Virus record (IMG/VR): IMGVR_UViG_3300025872_000394
Coordinates: 1-20,442 of that record
Direction: 5' to 3' (one strand)
Source of the DNA: a virus
Length of the DNA stretch: 20,442 nucleotides
This document shows positions 3,024-17,699 of this stretch, piece after piece; positions within the stretch are counted from its first letter, which is position 1, and each line of letters starts with the position of its first letter. Both the position numbers and the translations under genes were made by a program. Under the pieces are notes generated by a model, which was not told the DNA's origin, made no database searches, and worked only from the letters and a program-made list of their open reading frames with translations.

Positions 3024-3449
3024 TTAGTTTACCCTATGCATTATTACCGTTTCTTTTGCCGTGTCAATTTGGGAAAAATCTTTGTTCCGGTACTCTATCT
3101 CTGTAATTCCTAATTCGTGACCGTAAAATGAAGTTCCCTTATTTTTTTCGATAAAAATGCCACGCCTTGAATAAATGCATTCGTTTTCCTTTGTCTTGTT
3201 TGAGATTATTAAAGTACATTGGAAGGTGTCAGTTTTGGCAGGTGAACTTTGATCGTTCGGGTGTATATTCGGATAATAAGCTACCTTATTACAAGGAAGA
3301 TTAACAGGTTCAAATATTGCTGAATTTCCTACTTCAATAGTATCAACATTTCCATAAGTATAAATAGTATCAAGTTGGCTGTATATTCCATTTCCATTTT
3401 GAGCCAATCCTAAATTGTAGAAAAGAATAAAGAATAGCACGTATTTCAT
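3024..3449 (-). CDS. Secreted or periplasmic hypothetical protein
   Basis: This is a 141-residue protein with a clear N-terminal signal peptide: MKY, then a hydrophobic core (VLFFILFYNLGLA) and a probable cleavage just before QNGNG. There is no lipobox cysteine, so the mature protein should be soluble in the periplasm or outside the cell. The mature part is mixed beta-like with two Cys residues (CTLIISNKTKENEC) that could form a disulfide. Its ATG overlaps the stop of the preceding membrane-protein gene (ATGA, 3446-3449), tying it to the lipoprotein/membrane cassette. No family is recognised. Confidence 0.7.
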   Translation of the reverse strand: MKYVLFFILFYNLGLAQNGNGIYSQLDTIYTYGNVDTIEVGNSAIFEPVNLPCNKVAYYPNIHPNDQSSPAKTDTFQCTLIISNKTKENECIYSRRGIFIEKNKGTSFYGHELGITEIEYRNKDFSQIDTAKETVIMHRVN

Positions 3450-3631
3450 ACATCAGAATTTAATGTTTTGAAAATTAAAAACAAGGAACAAATGCCTAAA
3501 AATAATTCAATGGATGTAAAATCTCTTGTCATAAATTTGTATAACATCCAAAGGAAAAATGAACTGCTATAAATTACAATGGATAATACGATTGTAACAT
3601 TCAAAATCGTTCTTACTTGTTCGGTAGTCAT
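3446..3631 (-). CDS. Small two-TM membrane protein
   Basis: This is a 61-residue protein with two predicted membrane helices, about residues 10-32 (ILNVTIVLSIVIYSSSFFLWML) and 41-57 (IELFLGICSLFLIFKTL), joined by a short loop with Lys, Arg and Asp. The hairpin topology and size are compatible with a holin or antiholin, but also with any small phage membrane protein. The start lies 12 bases after a 34-codon gene, and the stop overlaps the start of the exported protein downstream. A better positioned holin candidate is at 17502-17699, next to the lytic enzyme. Confidence 0.65.
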   Translation of the reverse strand: MTTEQVRTILNVTIVLSIVIYSSSFFLWMLYKFMTRDFTSIELFLGICSLFLIFKTLNSDV

Positions 3632-3643
3632 GTTATTGATTAT

Positions 3644-3748
3644 TTACAGATTTTTAAAAATTTCATCATTGCTCACCGGCTTTGGCTTCTTTGAAAACCA
3701 GCCTTTGAGGATTTTGTAAACTGATATAAAGTTTATTTTAAAGTTCAT
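3644..3748 (-). CDS. 34-aa amphipathic micro-protein
   Basis: This short gene starts with ATG at 3748, one base after the TAA of the lipoprotein gene at 3750-3977, so it is probably coupled to it. The product begins MNFKINFISVYKILKGWFSKK and ends in a Lys/Pro/Asp-containing tail. It looks like an amphipathic, Lys-rich helix rather than a full membrane span. Support comes from exact abutment with its neighbours and absence of any other use for the space. Function is unknown. Confidence 0.5.
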   Translation of the reverse strand: MNFKINFISVYKILKGWFSKKPKPVSNDEIFKNL

Positions 3749-3749
3749 T

Positions 3750-3977
3750 TTACCTTATTTCACATACCCAATTTTGGCCATTTCTTAACCCCTGTATTTG
3801 CATTGAATCAATCCAGGTGCGCTTATCTTTTGGGTTACCATCACACATCGGCCCGGCAATGAAGTGTAAATTAACTTCTTCGCAATAGGCGCATCCTTCA
3901 GAATCTATGTAGTAATAAACGCATGAAGTTATCAATGCAAGTGCTGAAATTAAGACAATGGCTTTAAGGGTTTTCAT
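3750..3977 (-). CDS. Small cysteine-rich lipoprotein (copy 2)
   Basis: This is a 75-residue protein with a type II signal peptide: MKTLK, hydrophobic core AIVLISALALI, lipobox ITSC (Cys19 as the predicted lipidation site). The mature part has CAYC (about 29-32), then Asn, then a single Cys (PMCDG), a Trp/Gln region and a final Cys in VCEIR. This order of Cys and flanking residues is shared with the lipoprotein at 4227-4439, so the two are paralogues. It starts one base after the 42-aa membrane gene and is followed by the 34-aa gene one base later. Outer-membrane or periplasmic location is inferred. An outer spanin (lysis) role is possible, but the Cys-rich rather than Pro-rich mature region argues for another job such as surface exclusion. 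Confidence 0.75.
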   Translation of the reverse strand: MKTLKAIVLISALALITSCVYYYIDSEGCAYCEEVNLHFIAGPMCDGNPKDKRTWIDSMQIQGLRNGQNWVCEIR

Positions 3978-3978
3978 G

Positions 3979-4107
3979 TTACTTTGTTTTGGTTAATCCT
4001 TTTATAAACTGATCGAAAGCGTAGGCAATGGCTTCACCTACCTTTGGGAATTTGATTGCCACAACAAGCAGGGCAATGGATAAAATGATTGAGGCTGCTA
4101 TTATCAT
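3979..4107 (-). CDS. 42-aa single-TM micro-protein
   Basis: The gene starts ATG at 4107, overlapping the stop of the preceding 39-aa gene (ATGA), and ends one base before the downstream lipoprotein start. The product has one N-terminal membrane helix (MIIAASIILSIALLVVAI) followed by a short Lys-containing tail with an amphipathic segment (FPKVGEAIAYAFDQFIKGL). Exact junctions on both sides and an uninterrupted hydrophobic segment make it likely to be real. Roles such as inner spanin, holin modulator or partner of the adjacent lipoprotein are guesses. Confidence 0.65.
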   Translation of the reverse strand: MIIAASIILSIALLVVAIKFPKVGEAIAYAFDQFIKGLTKTK

Positions 4108-4223
4108 TTGACTTTGTTTTGATCGTTAAAAAAATTCCAAACTCTGTAAAGAACATACCCAACTACCAAAATAAGGCAACTTAATAAAACGAATCCGAGA
4201 TCAATGTAAATTTCTAACAACAT
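4104..4223 (-). CDS. 39-aa single-TM micro-protein
   Basis: The gene starts ATG at 4223, three bases after the TGA of the upstream lipoprotein gene, and its TGA overlaps the next ATG. The product has a single membrane helix at about residues 9-27 (LGFVLLSCLILVVGYVLY), then a short charged tail (RVWNFFNDQNKVK). The layout, lipoprotein followed at once by one-helix membrane peptides, recalls spanin pairs, although real inner spanins are usually much longer and coiled-coil. Family unknown. Confidence 0.65.
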   Translation of the reverse strand: MLLEIYIDLGFVLLSCLILVVGYVLYRVWNFFNDQNKVK

Positions 4224-4226
4224 GGT

Positions 4227-4439
4227 TCAATCAATTGTACACCTCACCGTATTTGGAGCATACTTCTGTTCCTGCCAACGGATATGTGAGTTAATAAAAT
4301 CCTGGTCTCCGCAAACGGGTTGAATGTAAATATCCGGCCTGTTTAAGACCTGACAAAGTGCGCATTTCTCTTGACTGCATCCAAATAGACAGGTCAGGAT
4401 TAAAGCGAATAGCGAAATTTTAAAATGGCATTTCTTCAT
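4227..4439 (-). CDS. Small cysteine-rich lipoprotein (copy 1)
   Basis: This is a 70-residue lipoprotein: MKKCHFK, hydrophobic core ISLFALILTCL, lipobox LFGC (Cys21). The mature region carries CALC (about 26-29), an Asn four residues on, a Cys in PVCGD, a Trp/Gln segment (RWQEQ) and a near-terminal Cys in VRCTID. The pattern matches the lipoprotein at 3750-3977 position by position, although overall identity is low, pointing to an old duplication. The gene starts inside the end of the preceding gene (20-base overlap) and leads the run of micro-genes. The two copies may form disulfide-stabilised folds at the outer membrane. Confidence 0.75.
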   Translation of the reverse strand: MKKCHFKISLFALILTCLFGCSQEKCALCQVLNRPDIYIQPVCGDQDFINSHIRWQEQKYAPNTVRCTID

Positions 4440-4731
4440 TGTTTACTTTTATGGGTTGTTGTGGATTTCCGGTTGTTGGTTTTTCCCAATCGTCAATTTT
4501 AACGGAGTGTGTGCGGTAGGTTGTACGGTTTTCAGGCTTCAATGGGAAAACTGCAAGGTCAATGCTTTTGTGAACTTTGCCTGTTTTGTCCTTCCATTCT
4601 TTGATCTTGTGCTTTGCTGCTCCTTTGGTGTATTCAAATAGTTCTGTTAAGTCCAATTGAATTTTCATTCCGTTACCGTTGGCTATCTCATTTGCGGAAC
4701 CGACATACATACTTTGTTTTTCTGCGCTCAT
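4420..4731 (-). CDS. Hypothetical protein with SSB-like acidic tail
   Basis: This is a 103-residue soluble protein. A beta-rich middle (KIQLDLTELFEY, KSIDLAVFPLKP, YRTHSVKIDDW) is followed by a Pro/Gln/Asn linker (TTGNPQQPIKV) and a tail ending NNEEMPF. That ending resembles the acidic-Pro-Phe tip of bacterial single-stranded DNA-binding proteins (typically DDIPF), which recruits repair and replication partners. An ssDNA-binding or tail-mimic role is therefore reasonable but unproven; no full OB fold can be confirmed by eye. Its ATG overlaps the AlkB-like gene's stop by one base (TAATG). Confidence 0.6.
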   Translation of the reverse strand: MSAEKQSMYVGSANEIANGNGMKIQLDLTELFEYTKGAAKHKIKEWKDKTGKVHKSIDLAVFPLKPENRTTYRTHSVKIDDWEKPTTGNPQQPIKVNNEEMPF

Positions 4732-5213
4732 TATATATTGATTTTTTCTTTTGAATTTCTGAATACTATTGAATATCGTTTATCTTCGGCCACCGCTTTA
4801 TGCTGCCACTTCCAGCGATATTCATTCTCTAAAATAGTCAAACTTCGTGGCTTCAATTCCAGGTGCTTTACTTCCAATGATTGCGGATTTCTTAGATAAA
4901 ATTTAGCCGTTCCTAACAAACTTAAAATTATTATCCGATTTCCTGAATTGTGAAGGTCAATATGATAATCAATCATTTGACCCTCAAAATATTCATTGAT
5001 CGTAACGCTGTCAAATTCTCCTGGAATATCCAGCTTTCGGAATATTTCAGGTATTTTATGACTTACCAAATTTGAAGGATAAGGGTGAACACTTCCAAAC
5101 CTTAAAACCTGGTTCCTGCCCTGCCCTAAACTTTCCTTTTCTGGAATTAACTTTAAAATTTCAGCTTCCTGAACTTTTGAAATGTAATCTTCTATATAAA
5201 TTACCGGATTCAC
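4731..5213 (-). CDS. AlkB-like 2-oxoglutarate/Fe(II) dioxygenase
   Basis: AlkB-family enzymes oxidatively remove alkyl groups from DNA or RNA bases using Fe(II) and 2-oxoglutarate. The 160-residue protein shows the signature: NEYF (73-76), the iron-binding HxD in YHIDLH (His84, Asp86), the distal His138 in WQHKAV, and the 2-oxoglutarate-binding Arg pair in KRYSIVFR (Arg146, Arg152, spacing R-x5-R). The start codon is GTG (5211-5213), overlapping the TGA of the 38-aa membrane gene (GTGA). No upstream in-frame alternative exists. It could repair phage DNA or reverse methylation; the same phage encodes a DNA methyltransferase domain at 8028-10214. The family assignment is good; the substrate is unknown. 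Confidence 0.85.
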   Translation of the reverse strand: MNPVIYIEDYISKVQEAEILKLIPEKESLGQGRNQVLRFGSVHPYPSNLVSHKIPEIFRKLDIPGEFDSVTINEYFEGQMIDYHIDLHNSGNRIIILSLLGTAKFYLRNPQSLEVKHLELKPRSLTILENEYRWKWQHKAVAEDKRYSIVFRNSKEKINI

Positions 5214-5372: not shown

Positions 5373-5419
5373 AAATCATTCTGGTAAACAATCAAAAATC
5401 ATGTATAAACATAAAATCG

Positions 5420-5491
5420 TTGCAGGGGTAGGAGTTGAACCTACATTTTCCGAAATATGAACCCGGAGTTCTGCCATTAAACTACCCTGCT
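5420..5491 (-). tRNA. tRNA with CAU anticodon (Met or Ile2)
   Basis: The minus strand folds as a full 72-nt cloverleaf. The acceptor is six pairs (GCAGGG with CCCTGC) plus an unpaired A1/A72, and the discriminator is A73. The D stem is GTTT/GAAC with GG in the loop. The anticodon stem is CCGGG/TTCGG with loop TTCATAT, giving anticodon CAU. The variable region is five bases, and the T arm is GTAGG-TTCAACT-CCTAC. CCA is not encoded. CAU can mean elongator Met, initiator Met, or Ile after lysidine modification. The missing 1:72 pair and G29-G31 are initiator-like; the U11-A24 pair is elongator-like. It is flanked by hairpins on both sides. Confidence 0.93.
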
Positions 5492-8027: not shown

Positions 8028-10214
8028 TTAAAATAGTTCAGCTTGTTTTTTTGATTCTAAAATAGATTTTATATTCTTTTTTGCCAATTGAAAATAACTT
8101 TCTTTTAATTCAAAGCCTATCGCCTTTCTACCCATTTTTAATGCCTGGTAAACTTCGCTACCTATACCCATGAATGGAGTAAAAACAGTATCCCCTTTGT
8201 TGCTGTATAGGTGAATTAATCGCTCTATAGTGTCAAGCTGCAAAGGGCAAATATGCTTCTCGTCATTATCCTCCCTACCGTTTCTAAAACCTTGCAGTGT
8301 GTTGCCATAATCAATGTCCATCCAGACAGGAGAAGCATACTTTTGCCACAAATCAACTGGTAAATCTGTATTTGTTACAGGATTATTTCTGTTTCCGTCT
8401 TTTCTGAATATCATAACATAATCTGGTATTCCAACCCTACTCATTGTACTATCTTTTTTAATTTGCTTGTGTAATAAACCAAGAGCCTTTGTTCTCTGCA
8501 TTTCAATTACCGGATCTTTCCAAATTGTTATTCTTGATGCATAAACAAACCCTGCATCCTCAAATGATCTAAGGATCATTCCTGAAAAATCCCTTAAACC
8601 TATAAATCCTTCCTTGCCCTTCTGTATTGGTAAATCCATACAATGCACACAAACATTTCTGCCTTGCATCATCACCCTATAAAGTTCTTTTATTAAAAAA
8701 CCAAACTGAATCAAAAATTCATTGTAGTCCTTTGAATTTCCCATATCTTCTAAATGACTCGAATACGTATATAATTCAGCGAATGGAGGACTAAAAACGC
8801 TCAATCCTATTGATTCAGAATTTACGTTCTCAATTAATTTAATACAATCACCTCTTTTTATTTCGCAAAATTCATTAATAAATTCCTTTGTATCAAATTC
8901 AGACAAACTCAATAAATTATTATTAAGGTTTTCATTAACCGCCTTACTCATTTCATCTTGCATTATTTCAAATTGTTTTTGTTTCGTTTCAATTGATTGT
9001 TTTACGTTTGCCATTGTATCTGTTGTTATAAGATAGATGTTAACTTCGTTTTTTTGTCCGAATCTGTAGCTTCTTCTAATTGCCTGGTAAAGCCCTTCAA
9101 ACGAGAAATCTAAACTTGCAAATATTTGATTGTTGCAATTTTGATAATTCATTCCGAAACTTGCTATCTTGGTTTTTGTTATTAATATTCTAAATTCGTT
9201 ATTTGCAAAGCCTAATAATGTTCGCTCTTTGTATTCAGTTGAATCATTACCTTTTACTTCTTTTGCATCTGGAATCATTTTTCTTAATAAATCACCTTCT
9301 TCGTTCTGTTTTATCCATATTATAAAGTTCTCATCCTGCTTTGAATTTATAATTCTTACAACTTCATTTAATCTCTCGTTTTTTGTATTCCTTAACTCGC
9401 TATTAAAATTTGTTGCTGAAATGATAGAATCATTAAATAGCATTCCATTATTTCTTTTAGGCGTTTTTATCTGATTCTCAATAATATTTAGACTCGGTAA
9501 ATCATAGCCATCAGCATCAAAACCTATATCCTGAGGCTTATTCAGCATTATAGCCCATGTACTTATAAATTGATAAAATAATTTTATAGCATGTCCTTTT
9601 AATCTCCATTTTGCAGTTTCGCCACCATCATGCACAAAATACATTGCTAACATTTCATTGCGGCTCATAATGTCTAAGAACTCCGAATGATTACCCATCT
9701 CCATTGGATCATTTGGGCTTGGCGTTGCCGTACACGCTAATTTATATGGAGTATTTTTAAACGAATCAATAATTAGCTTTTTTGTAGCCCCTTCAAAATT
9801 CTTTAAAATACTGCTTTCGTCTAAAACTATTCCAGAGAACAAAGAACAATCAATGTTTTCTAATTGCTCATAATTTGATATTTGAATACCATAGTTTGAA
9901 TTTCCTGTATATTTTACAACTGGTATATTAAACTTTTCGCCCTCTTTTATAGTTTGACCGGATACTGCCAACGGGCAAAGTATTAAAACTGGCTTACCTG
10001 TTTTTATATTTACTTGTTTCGCCCATTCAAGCTGCATTAATGTTTTACCTAATCCACAGTCAGCGAGTATGGCATACTTCCCGGCATTCAATGCTCTTTT
10101 AACAATAAACCTTTGGAAATCAAACATAAAACTATTTAGATCAGATTCTTTTATATCGAATCCACTAAATACATGAGCTTTCTGTTTGCTCTTTAGAAAT
10201 TCATTATAATTCAT
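8028..10214 (-). CDS. SNF2-type helicase fused to DNA methyltransferase
   Basis: This is a 728-residue two-domain protein. The N-terminal half is a superfamily 2 SNF2-like ATPase: Walker A in CGLGKT (53-58), DESS box (132-135), TATPSPND (162-169), and motif VI QAIRRSYRFGQ (377-387). The C-terminal third is an amino-type DNA methyltransferase: catalytic SPPF (475-478, variant of [DNS]PP[YFW]) followed by the AdoMet-binding loop TPFMGIGS (679-686), the order typical of the beta class. It probably modifies phage DNA (N6-adenine or N4-cytosine), with the motor aiding translocation or remodelling. No nuclease motif is evident, so it is not a complete restriction enzyme. It has its own promoter-like box 31-38 bases upstream. 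Confidence 0.88.
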   Translation of the reverse strand: MNYNEFLKSKQKAHVFSGFDIKESDLNSFMFDFQRFIVKRALNAGKYAILADCGLGKTLMQLEWAKQVNIKTGKPVLILCPLAVSGQTIKEGEKFNIPVVKYTGNSNYGIQISNYEQLENIDCSLFSGIVLDESSILKNFEGATKKLIIDSFKNTPYKLACTATPSPNDPMEMGNHSEFLDIMSRNEMLAMYFVHDGGETAKWRLKGHAIKLFYQFISTWAIMLNKPQDIGFDADGYDLPSLNIIENQIKTPKRNNGMLFNDSIISATNFNSELRNTKNERLNEVVRIINSKQDENFIIWIKQNEEGDLLRKMIPDAKEVKGNDSTEYKERTLLGFANNEFRILITKTKIASFGMNYQNCNNQIFASLDFSFEGLYQAIRRSYRFGQKNEVNIYLITTDTMANVKQSIETKQKQFEIMQDEMSKAVNENLNNNLLSLSEFDTKEFINEFCEIKRGDCIKLIENVNSESIGLSVFSPPFAELYTYSSHLEDMGNSKDYNEFLIQFGFLIKELYRVMMQGRNVCVHCMDLPIQKGKEGFIGLRDFSGMILRSFEDAGFVYASRITIWKDPVIEMQRTKALGLLHKQIKKDSTMSRVGIPDYVMIFRKDGNRNNPVTNTDLPVDLWQKYASPVWMDIDYGNTLQGFRNGREDNDEKHICPLQLDTIERLIHLYSNKGDTVFTPFMGIGSEVYQALKMGRKAIGFELKESYFQLAKKNIKSILESKKQAELF

Positions 10215-15488: not shown

Positions 15489-16511
15489 TTAAACTACCCT
15501 GCCGTTAATTATATCGCACAGTTTAACATCGAACGTGCCGCCCTCAAATGTTTCAACATGGGCGAAACCGTGCATTGAATTGCTAGCCAATGGGTTGTAA
15601 TCTGGTCGTAATTCACATAGGCAGCCGGTCGAAAAACACATCGTAACATTACCGTCAATGTCTATTTCTGTTTGTTTGGAAGACCTGTGCAAATGTCCTA
15701 TTAAGGTAGATTTTTTTGCCTTCATATAAACCCCCCTGGCAGGGTTTACCGGAGCGAATACTCCCTTAACTAAATGATGCCCGTGCGTTACATTTAATTT
15801 GCCCATTTTAACCAGCACTTTGTCATCTATTAAATGTATGCGCTCCTGATTTAATGCTAAACGGTTTTCAAGTTGGTAATAAGGATCGTCGAACACCTCC
15901 AGCACCTTTGTCATTAACCAACGTTCATATCTCATATCATGGTTCCCTTTGAGCCAATAAATATGTGCATTCGGGAAAGCTGCCCTCAAGGCAACGTTAA
16001 ATTGTTTTGCTGCTTCAAACTCTTGCTTTAGGCTTCTTTTGCGTGGGTCTTTTTCAAATTTTGAGCATCCATGAAAATCAATGAGATCACCGTTTATAAA
16101 AATCGTATTGCAGTTATTTTTAAGCCCATAGTTGAACGCAATTTCTATGCTTTGTGAATCGTGGTAAGGTATATGAAGATCAGACAACACTAATATATTG
16201 TTGCATCCAACGGGCAATGTAAACGGTTCACGGTCTGCTTTATAACTTTCTGGCAAATTAAACGGATTCTTGGGTCTATCTTCTTCCATTAGGTGTGTTT
16301 TTAATATTCCTGTTTTGCCTTTGCCTTCAATTGCCCTTAGCATTGTCCTTGCTGCGTCTATGCTTGAAAATACTGACTTGTTATCATTGTACATTTTACG
16401 GGCAAGCGTCAACGTTGGCACATCCATGCCATATTTGTCTCGGTACTCCCTTGCTAAATTTGATTTTGAAAACCCTTTTATTGTTTCGCCTTTTTTGGCC
16501 ATTACTTCCAT
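15489..16511 (-). CDS. Calcineurin-like metallophosphoesterase
   Basis: This is a 340-residue protein with the complete two-metal phosphoesterase motif set: DLH (111-113), GDLID (141-145), GNHD (189-192), a His-rich THGHH (242-246) and GHLH (272-275). About 75 N-terminal residues form a Lys/Arg-rich helical region (SNLAREYRDKYG, LARKMYNDN, DAARTMLRAI) that looks like a DNA-binding or helix-turn-helix leader, as seen in related phage proteins. Substrate is unknown; nucleotide or polynucleotide phosphoester cleavage is the family range. Two starts are possible: ATG at 16511, or ATG at 16502, which overlaps the lytic enzyme's stop by one base (TAATG) and is equally plausible. Confidence 0.85.
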   Translation of the reverse strand: MEVMAKKGETIKGFSKSNLAREYRDKYGMDVPTLTLARKMYNDNKSVFSSIDAARTMLRAIEGKGKTGILKTHLMEEDRPKNPFNLPESYKADREPFTLPVGCNNILVLSDLHIPYHDSQSIEIAFNYGLKNNCNTIFINGDLIDFHGCSKFEKDPRKRSLKQEFEAAKQFNVALRAAFPNAHIYWLKGNHDMRYERWLMTKVLEVFDDPYYQLENRLALNQERIHLIDDKVLVKMGKLNVTHGHHLVKGVFAPVNPARGVYMKAKKSTLIGHLHRSSKQTEIDIDGNVTMCFSTGCLCELRPDYNPLASNSMHGFAHVETFEGGTFDVKLCDIINGRVV

Positions 16512-16993
16512 GTATTTTCATAGCCGCCTTCGACAAGATCAAGCCACACAAGCGCAAATAAATTATCTGAAATTAAAGGATCACGCCCGTTTTCATGTCG
16601 GCAAATTTCACGGGTCAAAAGTTTAACGTTCTCACGGCTCCATTCAAATTTATCCCTTGCCTTAAATCCGGTTCCTTTGCAAACTTGTTGAACGTAACTG
16701 AATGTTTGATTTTCGACGGGCGGGGCATATTTGTTTAACACCTTTTCAATTGTAGTCAACTTGTACTTAAAATAATATGATCCCAATAAAACTACTAAAG
16801 CCCTTACGCCTTGCCAATATTTACCGAATTGCTCGAATGATCTGTCCTTAGAATCAGAATGTGGAATTTTGCCCTTCCATTGGCTTTTACTTTTTCGAAT
16901 GTTTCCAGGATTATTATTTCGCATCCCTCTCGGGTATCGACCATCGTTTAAAAATGTAACATCTAAAGGGCTGTTTACAATTTCCTGGAGCAT
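16502..16993 (-). CDS. Lysozyme-like lytic enzyme (endolysin candidate)
   Basis: This is a 163-residue protein with the signature RGMRNNNPGNIR (22-33), followed by Trp/Gly (QWKGKI), FxxFG (53-57), GVRALVVLLGSYY (62-74) and YAPPVENQT (89-97). This pattern is typical of phage muralytic proteins of the lysozyme/transglycosylase superfamily, found both as endolysins and as virion-associated enzymes. There is no signal peptide, so release would need a holin; a two-helix membrane protein lies at 17502-17699. A strong terminator directly precedes it (17018-17046). Confidence 0.8.
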   Translation of the reverse strand: MLQEIVNSPLDVTFLNDGRYPRGMRNNNPGNIRKSKSQWKGKIPHSDSKDRSFEQFGKYWQGVRALVVLLGSYYFKYKLTTIEKVLNKYAPPVENQTFSYVQQVCKGTGFKARDKFEWSRENVKLLTREICRHENGRDPLISDNLFALVWLDLVEGGYENTWK

Positions 16994-17017
16994 GAAAATA
17001 ATTTTTAAGAAACAAAA

Positions 17018-17046
17018 AAGGGCAGCCTATTTATCGTACTGCCCTT
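17018..17046 (-). terminator. Intrinsic terminator before the lytic enzyme gene
   Basis: A perfect 8-bp stem AAGGGCAG (17018-17025) with CTGCCCTT (17039-17046) and 13-base loop gives a six-T run on the minus strand. It follows the stop of the secreted-protein gene by 16 bases and leaves only 25 bases before the lytic gene's ATG, which raises the possibility of controlled read-through into lysis. Confidence 0.85.
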
Positions 17047-17062
17047 AGAAAATTATTCACTT

Positions 17063-17467
17063 TCAATTCTCTTTTTTTACCTCTGCAAAGATTTTTAATC
17101 TTGTGCTTTGGGTTCCTGATGTAATTACCTCGTATTTTATTCGACCGCTCATATAGTTTCCTGTTATCGCTTTGCTTGTTGTTTGAACTCCGTTTATCGT
17201 AACCGTTCCGATGCTTATATATTCAGTACTTGAAGCCTCTTTAGGTTTGTGATAAAACGTAATTGTTCCGGCAGTTGACCCGCTCAATGAATCAGCGATG
17301 ATGTGAAAAGCGTAATCAAATGGATAGCTAAACTCCATTGTTTCCCGTGTAATCGTATCAGCGTTCGTAATTGTGTCAAGTGTTTCCGTAACATACGTAC
17401 GGTTAACCTGACCAAACGAAACAAACGAAACAGCAAGGAATGAAAATAGTAAAAGAAATTTTTTCAT
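17063..17467 (-). CDS. Small secreted beta-rich protein
   Basis: This is a 134-residue protein with a canonical signal peptide: MKK, hydrophobic core FLLLFSFLAVSFVSF, cleavage probably after FGQ. The mature region is Thr/Ser-rich and strand-rich (TITFYHKPKEAS, ISIGTVTINGVQ, GRIKYEVITSGT), like a small jelly-roll or fibre-like domain. An exported protein here is unusual for virion genes; it may act at the cell surface. A promoter-like box (17497-17504) lies just upstream and a terminator just downstream, so it may be a separate transcript. Confidence 0.7.
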   Translation of the reverse strand: MKKFLLLFSFLAVSFVSFGQVNRTYVTETLDTITNADTITRETMEFSYPFDYAFHIIADSLSGSTAGTITFYHKPKEASSTEYISIGTVTINGVQTTSKAITGNYMSGRIKYEVITSGTQSTRLKIFAEVKKEN

Positions 17468-17496
17468 TTTAAAAATATTTTAAACGTTTAAAAATA

Positions 17497-17504
17497 CAAA
17501 GCTA
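17497..17504 (-). promoter_or_regulatory. Possible -7 box before the secreted protein
   Basis: Minus-strand TAGCTTTG matches TAnnTTTG, 30-37 bases before the ATG at 17467, but it overlaps the stop codon of the holin-like gene and has no clear -33 element. A 10-bp palindrome TAAACGTTTA (17481-17490) lies between it and the gene. Confidence 0.35.
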
Positions 17505-17699
17505 TTGATCCCTCTTAAAAAAGAAACCATATAAGGCCACTACCAACCCTATAATAACATTAGCAGCATCCCAGACTGCATCTAAATTATTTTGAAGGAA
17601 TGTTAAAACTGGAAGCCATGCATTGAGGCCAATTAAGCCAATGATAGTTCCAATTGCCGTTAAAAAATGTCGAATTAAAGATTTTGTTTTCGGATCCAT
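17502..17699 (-). CDS. Holin-like membrane protein
   Basis: This is a 65-residue protein with two membrane helices, roughly residues 12-34 (FLTAIGTIIGLIGLNAWLPVLTF) and 44-61 (AANVIIGLVVALYGFFF). They are separated by a short polar loop (LQNNLDAVWD), and the C-terminus is charged (KRDQ). Size, topology and position near the lysozyme-like gene fit a holin that lets the endolysin reach the cell wall. Holins are too diverse for certainty. Confidence 0.6.
   Translation of the reverse strand: MDPKTKSLIRHFLTAIGTIIGLIGLNAWLPVLTFLQNNLDAVWDAANVIIGLVVALYGFFFKRDQ

What the first reader, a model, noticed from the sequence alone, without database searches (positions are those of the whole stretch)
3644..4439. 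Translationally coupled micro-cassette of lipoproteins and tiny membrane peptides
Five consecutive genes of 34-75 codons (lipoprotein, one-TM, one-TM, lipoprotein, amphipathic peptide) abut or overlap with gaps of 0-3 bases, and a two-TM gene and a signal-peptide gene follow. Only two short frames fill the space between the lipoproteins, and their junctions are exact. The layout suggests a membrane-spanning system: a new lysis/spanin type, a surface-exclusion device or a host-envelope modifier.
Basis: partly seen in the sequence, partly recalled or inferred. Interest (0 to 1): 0.7.

Follow-up and report, generated by a model that had tools for sequence, protein, structure and literature searches.

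The report
Phage operon of tiny envelope proteins
A phage that probably infects Chitinophagales bacteria packs two small lipoproteins and several tiny membrane peptides into one tight run of genes; the genes look real, but only one lipoprotein recurs in the closest relative found, so this looks like a collection of separate envelope genes (perhaps including a blocker of re-infection) rather than one new membrane-spanning machine.

Summary
The layout is real. The five frames are at the stated coordinates on the minus strand, with gaps of 3, -4, 1 and 1 bases. Shuffling the DNA between the two lipoprotein genes rarely rebuilds such a two-gene tiling (24 of 20,000) and never with two transmembrane products. 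No other run with four or more membrane-targeted small genes turned up in 1.73 Mb of phage DNA.

The unit interpretation fails. The closest relative found (L143, terminase 61-62% identical) has one ortholog of the first lipoprotein (41.5%, E 3e-15), elsewhere, near terS. It has no detectable homolog of the 39-, 42-, 34- and 61-codon genes, the second lipoprotein or the 141-codon gene. The two lipoproteins share four cysteines and are probably, not certainly, paralogs. The first is predicted as a compact beta-beta-alpha-beta domain.

A holin-like/endolysin pair and a spanin-like pair lie elsewhere in this phage, and the TM peptides lack the long periplasmic domain of an i-spanin, so lysis is unlikely. 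Best reading: a small, probably disulfide-bonded outer-membrane lipoprotein acting in superinfection exclusion (Llp-like by analogy, not homology), with the TM peptides as phage-specific accessory genes. The function is inferred; the family has no annotated homolog.

The parts
4227..4439 (-). lipoprotein of 70 aa (mature part about 50 aa, four conserved cysteines besides the lipidated one)
   Evidence: Lipobox LFGC; ortholog L143 6011-6241 at 41.5% identity, E 3e-15; mature-domain shuffle z 22, dN 0.58 against saturated dS; AlphaFold2 beta-beta-alpha-beta, block pLDDT 87-91 beyond residue 30
4104..4223 (-). 39-aa single-TM peptide, predicted N-out/C-in
   Evidence: Hydrophobic core 2.51, tail charge +2; tiling not matched by shuffles; no homolog found
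3979..4107 (-). 42-aa single-TM peptide with amphipathic cationic tail, predicted N-out/C-in; ATGA overlap with the 39-mer
   Evidence: Hydrophobic core 3.02, tail charge +3, highest moment of the set; no homolog found
3750..3977 (-). lipoprotein of 75 aa, probable diverged paralog of the 70-aa one
   Evidence: Lipobox ITSC; shared cysteine pattern; profile score exceeded by 15 of 5,000 shuffles with signal peptide kept, 107 of 4,884 for the mature part alone
3644..3748 (-). 34-aa cationic peptide frame, least certain of the set
   Evidence: ORF with 1-base gap; codon score ambiguous
3446..3631 (-). 61-aa protein with two hydrophobic segments
   Evidence: hydrophobic core 1.95; no family
3024..3449 (-). 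141-aa secreted protein with signal peptide
   Evidence: coding-like codon score; no homolog

Best explanation
This is a dense accessory block of small envelope-directed genes between the replication genes and the terminase of a siphophage that probably infects Chitinophagales. It is not one co-evolved machine. Its conserved component is a small lipoprotein with four conserved cysteines and a compact domain of about 50 residues, present as one copy in a relative and probably as two diverged copies here. Most likely mechanism (inferred): the pre-lipoprotein is exported and lipidated, disulfides form, and it sits on the periplasmic face of the outer membrane, where it binds an outer-membrane receptor such as a TonB-dependent transporter and blocks adsorption of further phages, as T5 Llp and Rtp45 do. 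Two diverged copies could cover two receptors or receptor states. The 39- and 42-residue TM peptides, the 34-mer and the two-TM protein are separate phage-specific accessory genes in the same block. Shown: the genes, the lipoprotein family, its place in the relative, the absence of the other genes there. Probable: the second copy. Inferred: localisation, disulfides, receptor blocking, host.
For: Lipoprotein ortholog alone and at another place in L143, no other cassette gene detectable there. Confident compact fold of the mature domain. Size and cysteines like the exclusion lipoproteins Llp (Cys11-Cys58 disulfide, periplasmic, PMC9586334) and Rtp45 (about 6 kDa, PMC12685063). Lysis genes lie elsewhere. 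Another distant relative has unrelated small TM and secreted genes at the same place upstream of terS, as expected of a variable accessory region.
Against: No sequence or fold similarity to Llp, Cor or Rtp45; the weak Cor match of the L143 protein (E 0.14) covers only its signal peptide. The genes are not beside the receptor-binding genes, where coliphage exclusion factors usually sit (PMC11990801). Only one informative relative was found, and its record is incomplete (27 kb).
Confidence: 0.4

Rival explanations
1. Ordinary accessory genes: unrelated small envelope proteins collected in a tightly packed block, each with its own host-takeover or envelope role; the lipoprotein does something other than exclusion.
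For: No family match for any of them; gene content of this place differs in each relative; tight packing is general here.
Against: Five membrane-targeted genes in one run is unusual in 1.73 Mb of phage DNA, and the lipoprotein is probably present twice, which suggests a shared purpose for at least those two.
Confidence: 0.36
2. One system: the lipoproteins in the outer membrane work with the single-TM peptides in the inner membrane as an exclusion or envelope-control device.
For: Exact junctions, including one ATGA overlap; the run is unusual; similar but unrelated membrane-gene run upstream of terS in a distant relative.
Against: In L143 the lipoprotein ortholog occurs without the peptides. 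Predicted C-in tails leave almost nothing of the peptides in the periplasm to meet a lipoprotein.
Confidence: 0.1
3. A new type of lysis or spanin cassette.
For: Lipoprotein gene next to small TM genes in a Gram-negative phage; short lipoproteins as in Rz1.
Against: i-spanins are N-in/C-out with long periplasmic helical domains (PMC6139136); these peptides have tails of 13-24 residues and the opposite predicted topology. A holin-like and an endolysin-family gene are 12 kb away and a TM plus coiled-coil gene overlapping a signal-peptide gene is found in L111.
Confidence: 0.06
4. The 39-, 42- and 34-codon frames are not genes; only the lipoproteins are.
For: Codon model scores lie between true and false windows; no relative keeps them.
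Against: Tiling with two TM products was never reached in 20,000 shuffles; hydrophobic cores of 2.5 and 3.0 are typical of real TM segments. The 34-mer lacks such support.
Confidence: 0.08

Closest known systems
T5 Llp, Cor proteins and Rtp45 (superinfection-exclusion lipoproteins of coliphages)
   Same: Small single-domain phage lipoprotein of about 6 kDa mature mass with periplasmic-type cysteines
   Different: No sequence or fold match; four conserved cysteines rather than the single disulfide described for Llp; probably two copies; not beside the receptor-binding genes; different host phylum
Two-component spanins (Rz/Rz1 type)
   Same: Small lipoprotein gene next to small inner-membrane protein genes with overlapping or abutting frames
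   Different: No long periplasmic coiled coil, opposite predicted topology of the TM peptides, folded rather than proline-rich lipoprotein, not in the lysis locus, pairing not conserved in the relative
Generic phage accessory (moron) blocks
   Same: Tightly packed small genes of no known family, differing between relatives
   Different: Unusual concentration of envelope-targeted products and a probable duplicated lipoprotein

Membership tests
Two-component spanins | o-spanin: small outer-membrane lipoprotein | tested here: met
   Signal peptide plus lipobox in both lipoproteins by sequence; outer-membrane sorting itself not testable
Two-component spanins | i-spanin: N-in/C-out TM protein with long periplasmic helical domain | tested here: not met
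   Tails of 13 and 24 residues with net positive charge, predicted C-in; definition from PMC6139136
Two-component spanins | Pair kept together in relatives | tested here: not met
   L143 has the lipoprotein without the peptides
Two-component spanins | Location near holin/endolysin | tested here: not met
   Holin-like gene at 17699-17502 and endolysin-family gene at 16993-16502
Llp/Cor exclusion lipoproteins | Small lipoprotein of about 60 mature residues or fewer | tested here: met
   Mature parts of about 50 and 57 residues
Llp/Cor exclusion lipoproteins | Sequence similarity to Cor/Llp families | tested here: not met
   No PHROG Cor match for the window proteins at E up to 1; L143 match E 0.14 in the signal peptide only
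Llp/Cor exclusion lipoproteins | Fold similar to solved Llp or Rtp45 | tested here: not met
   No significant PDB match and no exclusion lipoprotein among 45 listed
Llp/Cor exclusion lipoproteins | Intramolecular disulfide | tested here: inconclusive
   Four conserved cysteines in all three sequences; bonds not observable
Llp/Cor exclusion lipoproteins | Gene beside receptor-binding protein gene | tested here: not met
   Lies between a 103-aa gene and the terminase block; usual location from PMC11990801
Llp/Cor exclusion lipoproteins | Blocks adsorption of further phages | not testable with these tools
   Needs expression and adsorption assay

The most novel reading that the evidence does not exclude
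A previously undescribed exclusion or envelope-takeover system of Bacteroidota phages, in which a duplicated four-cysteine lipoprotein on the outer membrane works with several single-TM peptides in the inner membrane.
Probability: 0.1. Interest if true: 0.65.

Novelty: new member of a known kind. Interest (0 to 1): 0.33.

Why it matters
Small phage lipoproteins that block receptors are known mainly from coliphages. A Bacteroidota counterpart would show how phages of these bacteria protect infected cells and could point to their receptors. The case also shows that a striking gene layout in one genome need not be a functional unit: the nearest relative keeps only one of the seven genes.

Tried and rejected
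(1) Homologs of four of these proteins in 50,697 phage records: only chance matches; the best hit for the 75-mer lies in an unrelated fecal contig. (2) 80 IMG/VR loci sharing the helicase-methylase: apart from this phage itself none carries a cassette gene, so that gene is no guide to kinship. (3) 349 Chitinophagales genomes with the two-lipoprotein profile: 102 genomes with weak matches, the strongest with stops inside; background. (4) Codon-model test of the small frames: inconclusive because of amino-acid composition. (5) Paralogy of the 39- and 42-mer: z 1.7, not supported. (6) Bacteroidota-type promoter scan: no full consensus on the coding strand. (7) PDB and viral fold searches of the 70-mer: nothing significant. 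(8) PADLOC, NCBIfam and Pfam: nothing above cut-off for the cassette. (9) Terminase in 395 genomes of the wider class: none at E up to 1e-30. (10) A large structural protein in 349 Chitinophagales genomes: two distant hits; one, G284, shows no other homolog in the surrounding 20 kb.

Full report
Observation. Reading 5' to 3': a 103-aa gene (4731-4420), lipoprotein of 70 aa (4439-4227), 39-aa TM peptide (4223-4104), 42-aa TM peptide (4107-3979), lipoprotein of 75 aa (3977-3750), 34-aa cationic peptide (3748-3644), 61-aa protein with two hydrophobic segments (3631-3446), 141-aa signal-peptide protein (3449-3024) and a 289-aa gene (3011-2142). Junctions are -20, 3, -4, 1, 1, 12, -4 and 12 bases.

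Is it more than chance? The 249 bases between the two lipoprotein genes were shuffled 20,000 times with dinucleotides kept. Two tiled ATG frames of 25 aa or more appeared 24 times, never with two TM products. In 1.73 Mb of phage loci no other run with four or more membrane-targeted small genes was found; with three or more and slightly looser limits, only L138, a distant relative, had one. These thresholds were set after seeing the window. Tight junctions themselves are ordinary for this stretch of the genome. A codon-usage model did not discriminate: the short frames score between true and false windows.

What genome is this? The window is part of a phage genome held more completely as contig IMGVR_UViG_3300025732_000080 (43,389 bases, G001); the proteins compared are identical, and the window runs over that contig's ends, so the genome is circular or circularly permuted. 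Terminase, a tape measure protein and a putative major capsid protein indicate a siphophage. Relatives of its 728-aa helicase-methylase at 76-77% identity occur in contigs binned with Chitinophagaceae, so a Chitinophagales host is likely but not shown.

The decisive comparison. A two-sequence terminase alignment found one real relative, L143 (record of 27 kb, terminase 61-62% identical, structural proteins mostly 36-72% identical). It contains orthologs of the oxygenase, the 289-aa gene, the 62-aa gene at 1641-1453, terS and terL. It also contains one lipoprotein gene (L143 6011-6241), orthologous to the window's 70-aa lipoprotein: 41.5% identity, E 3e-15, mature-domain shuffle z of 22, and dN 0.58 against a saturated dS. 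This gene lies downstream of the 289-aa and 62-aa gene homologs, near terS, not between the 103-aa and 289-aa genes. No homolog of the 39-, 42-, 34-, 61- or 141-aa genes or of the second lipoprotein was detectable in the record. So the lipoprotein is inherited independently of the TM peptides. A more distant relative, L138 (terminase 33-35%), has other small TM and secreted genes with ATGA overlaps upstream of terS, none homologous to the window's. This suggests a variable accessory region near the terminase.

The two lipoproteins. They share C-x2-C-x3-[NG], a third cysteine 13-14 positions further on and a fourth near the C-terminus. A profile of the 70-mer and its L143 ortholog scores the 75-mer above all but 15 of 5,000 shuffles when the signal peptide is kept, and above all but 107 of 4,884 for the mature part alone. 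Paralogy is probable, not proven. AlphaFold2 with three sequences gives the 70-mer a confident beta-beta-alpha-beta mature domain (block pLDDT 87-91 beyond residue 30); the earlier two-sequence model of the 75-mer has the same order of elements at low confidence. Fold searches find nothing significant.

Function. Lysis is unlikely. A two-TM holin-like gene (17699-17502, by inspection) and an endolysin-family gene (16993-16502, phrog_873, E 1.4e-39) lie elsewhere. A 95-aa TM plus predicted coiled-coil protein overlapping a 75-aa signal-peptide protein (L111 3666-3379 and 3382-3155) looks more like a spanin pair (by inspection). The 39- and 42-mers have net-positive C-terminal tails (+2, +3), predicting N-out/C-in, the reverse of an i-spanin (PMC6139136). 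[quoted passage not shown] Rtp45, about 6 kDa, acts on LptDE (PMC12685063). The window proteins match in size and in having cysteines, but not in sequence, fold or genomic neighbourhood. I therefore say 'may work like Llp', not 'is an Llp'.

Verdict. A real, dense and unusual-looking run of small envelope genes, but not a conserved unit. It holds an undescribed family of four-cysteine phage lipoproteins, with a probable second copy here, plus phage-specific TM peptides of unknown role.

Noticed in passing
window 3971-3991 and 4101-4121: Near-identical 21-nt sequence (CAAAACAAAGT...ATG) at the starts of the 42-aa and 75-aa genes, 130 nt apart (86% identical). The exact 9-mer AAACAAAGT preceding a start occurs at only a few places in the genome. 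Could be a footprint of insertion or loss of the 42-aa gene, but similar two-copy repeats occur by chance here.
   Followed up: partly
window 8028-10214: The helicase-methylase fusion is 78-84% identical across at least 80 IMG/VR contigs whose other genes are unrelated to this phage, and is missing from L143, the closest relative by terminase. It looks like a strongly conserved, freely exchanged gene.
   Followed up: partly
window 16502-17699: Likely lysis pair: 65-aa two-TM holin-like gene (17699-17502) and 163-aa endolysin-family gene (16993-16502, phrog_873), with a signal-peptide gene between them.
   Followed up: partly
L111 2428-3666 (minus strand): Spanin-like pair (95-aa TM plus coiled coil, overlapping 75-aa signal-peptide protein) followed by a 249-aa protein with a metalloprotease-like HEALHALGFEH motif.
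   Followed up: no
window 4420-4731; L143 4390-4701: Small proteins with acidic tips (NNEEMPF, DDLPF) resembling the C-terminal tail of single-strand DNA-binding proteins; the L143 one matches phrog_24909 of unknown function.
   Followed up: partly
window 5419-5491: tRNA gene with CAT anticodon just upstream of the operon.
   Followed up: no
window 4731-5213: Likely 2OG-Fe(II) oxygenase of the AlkB type (PF13532, E 8e-7, just below the curated cut-off), conserved in L143 at 49% identity.
   Followed up: partly
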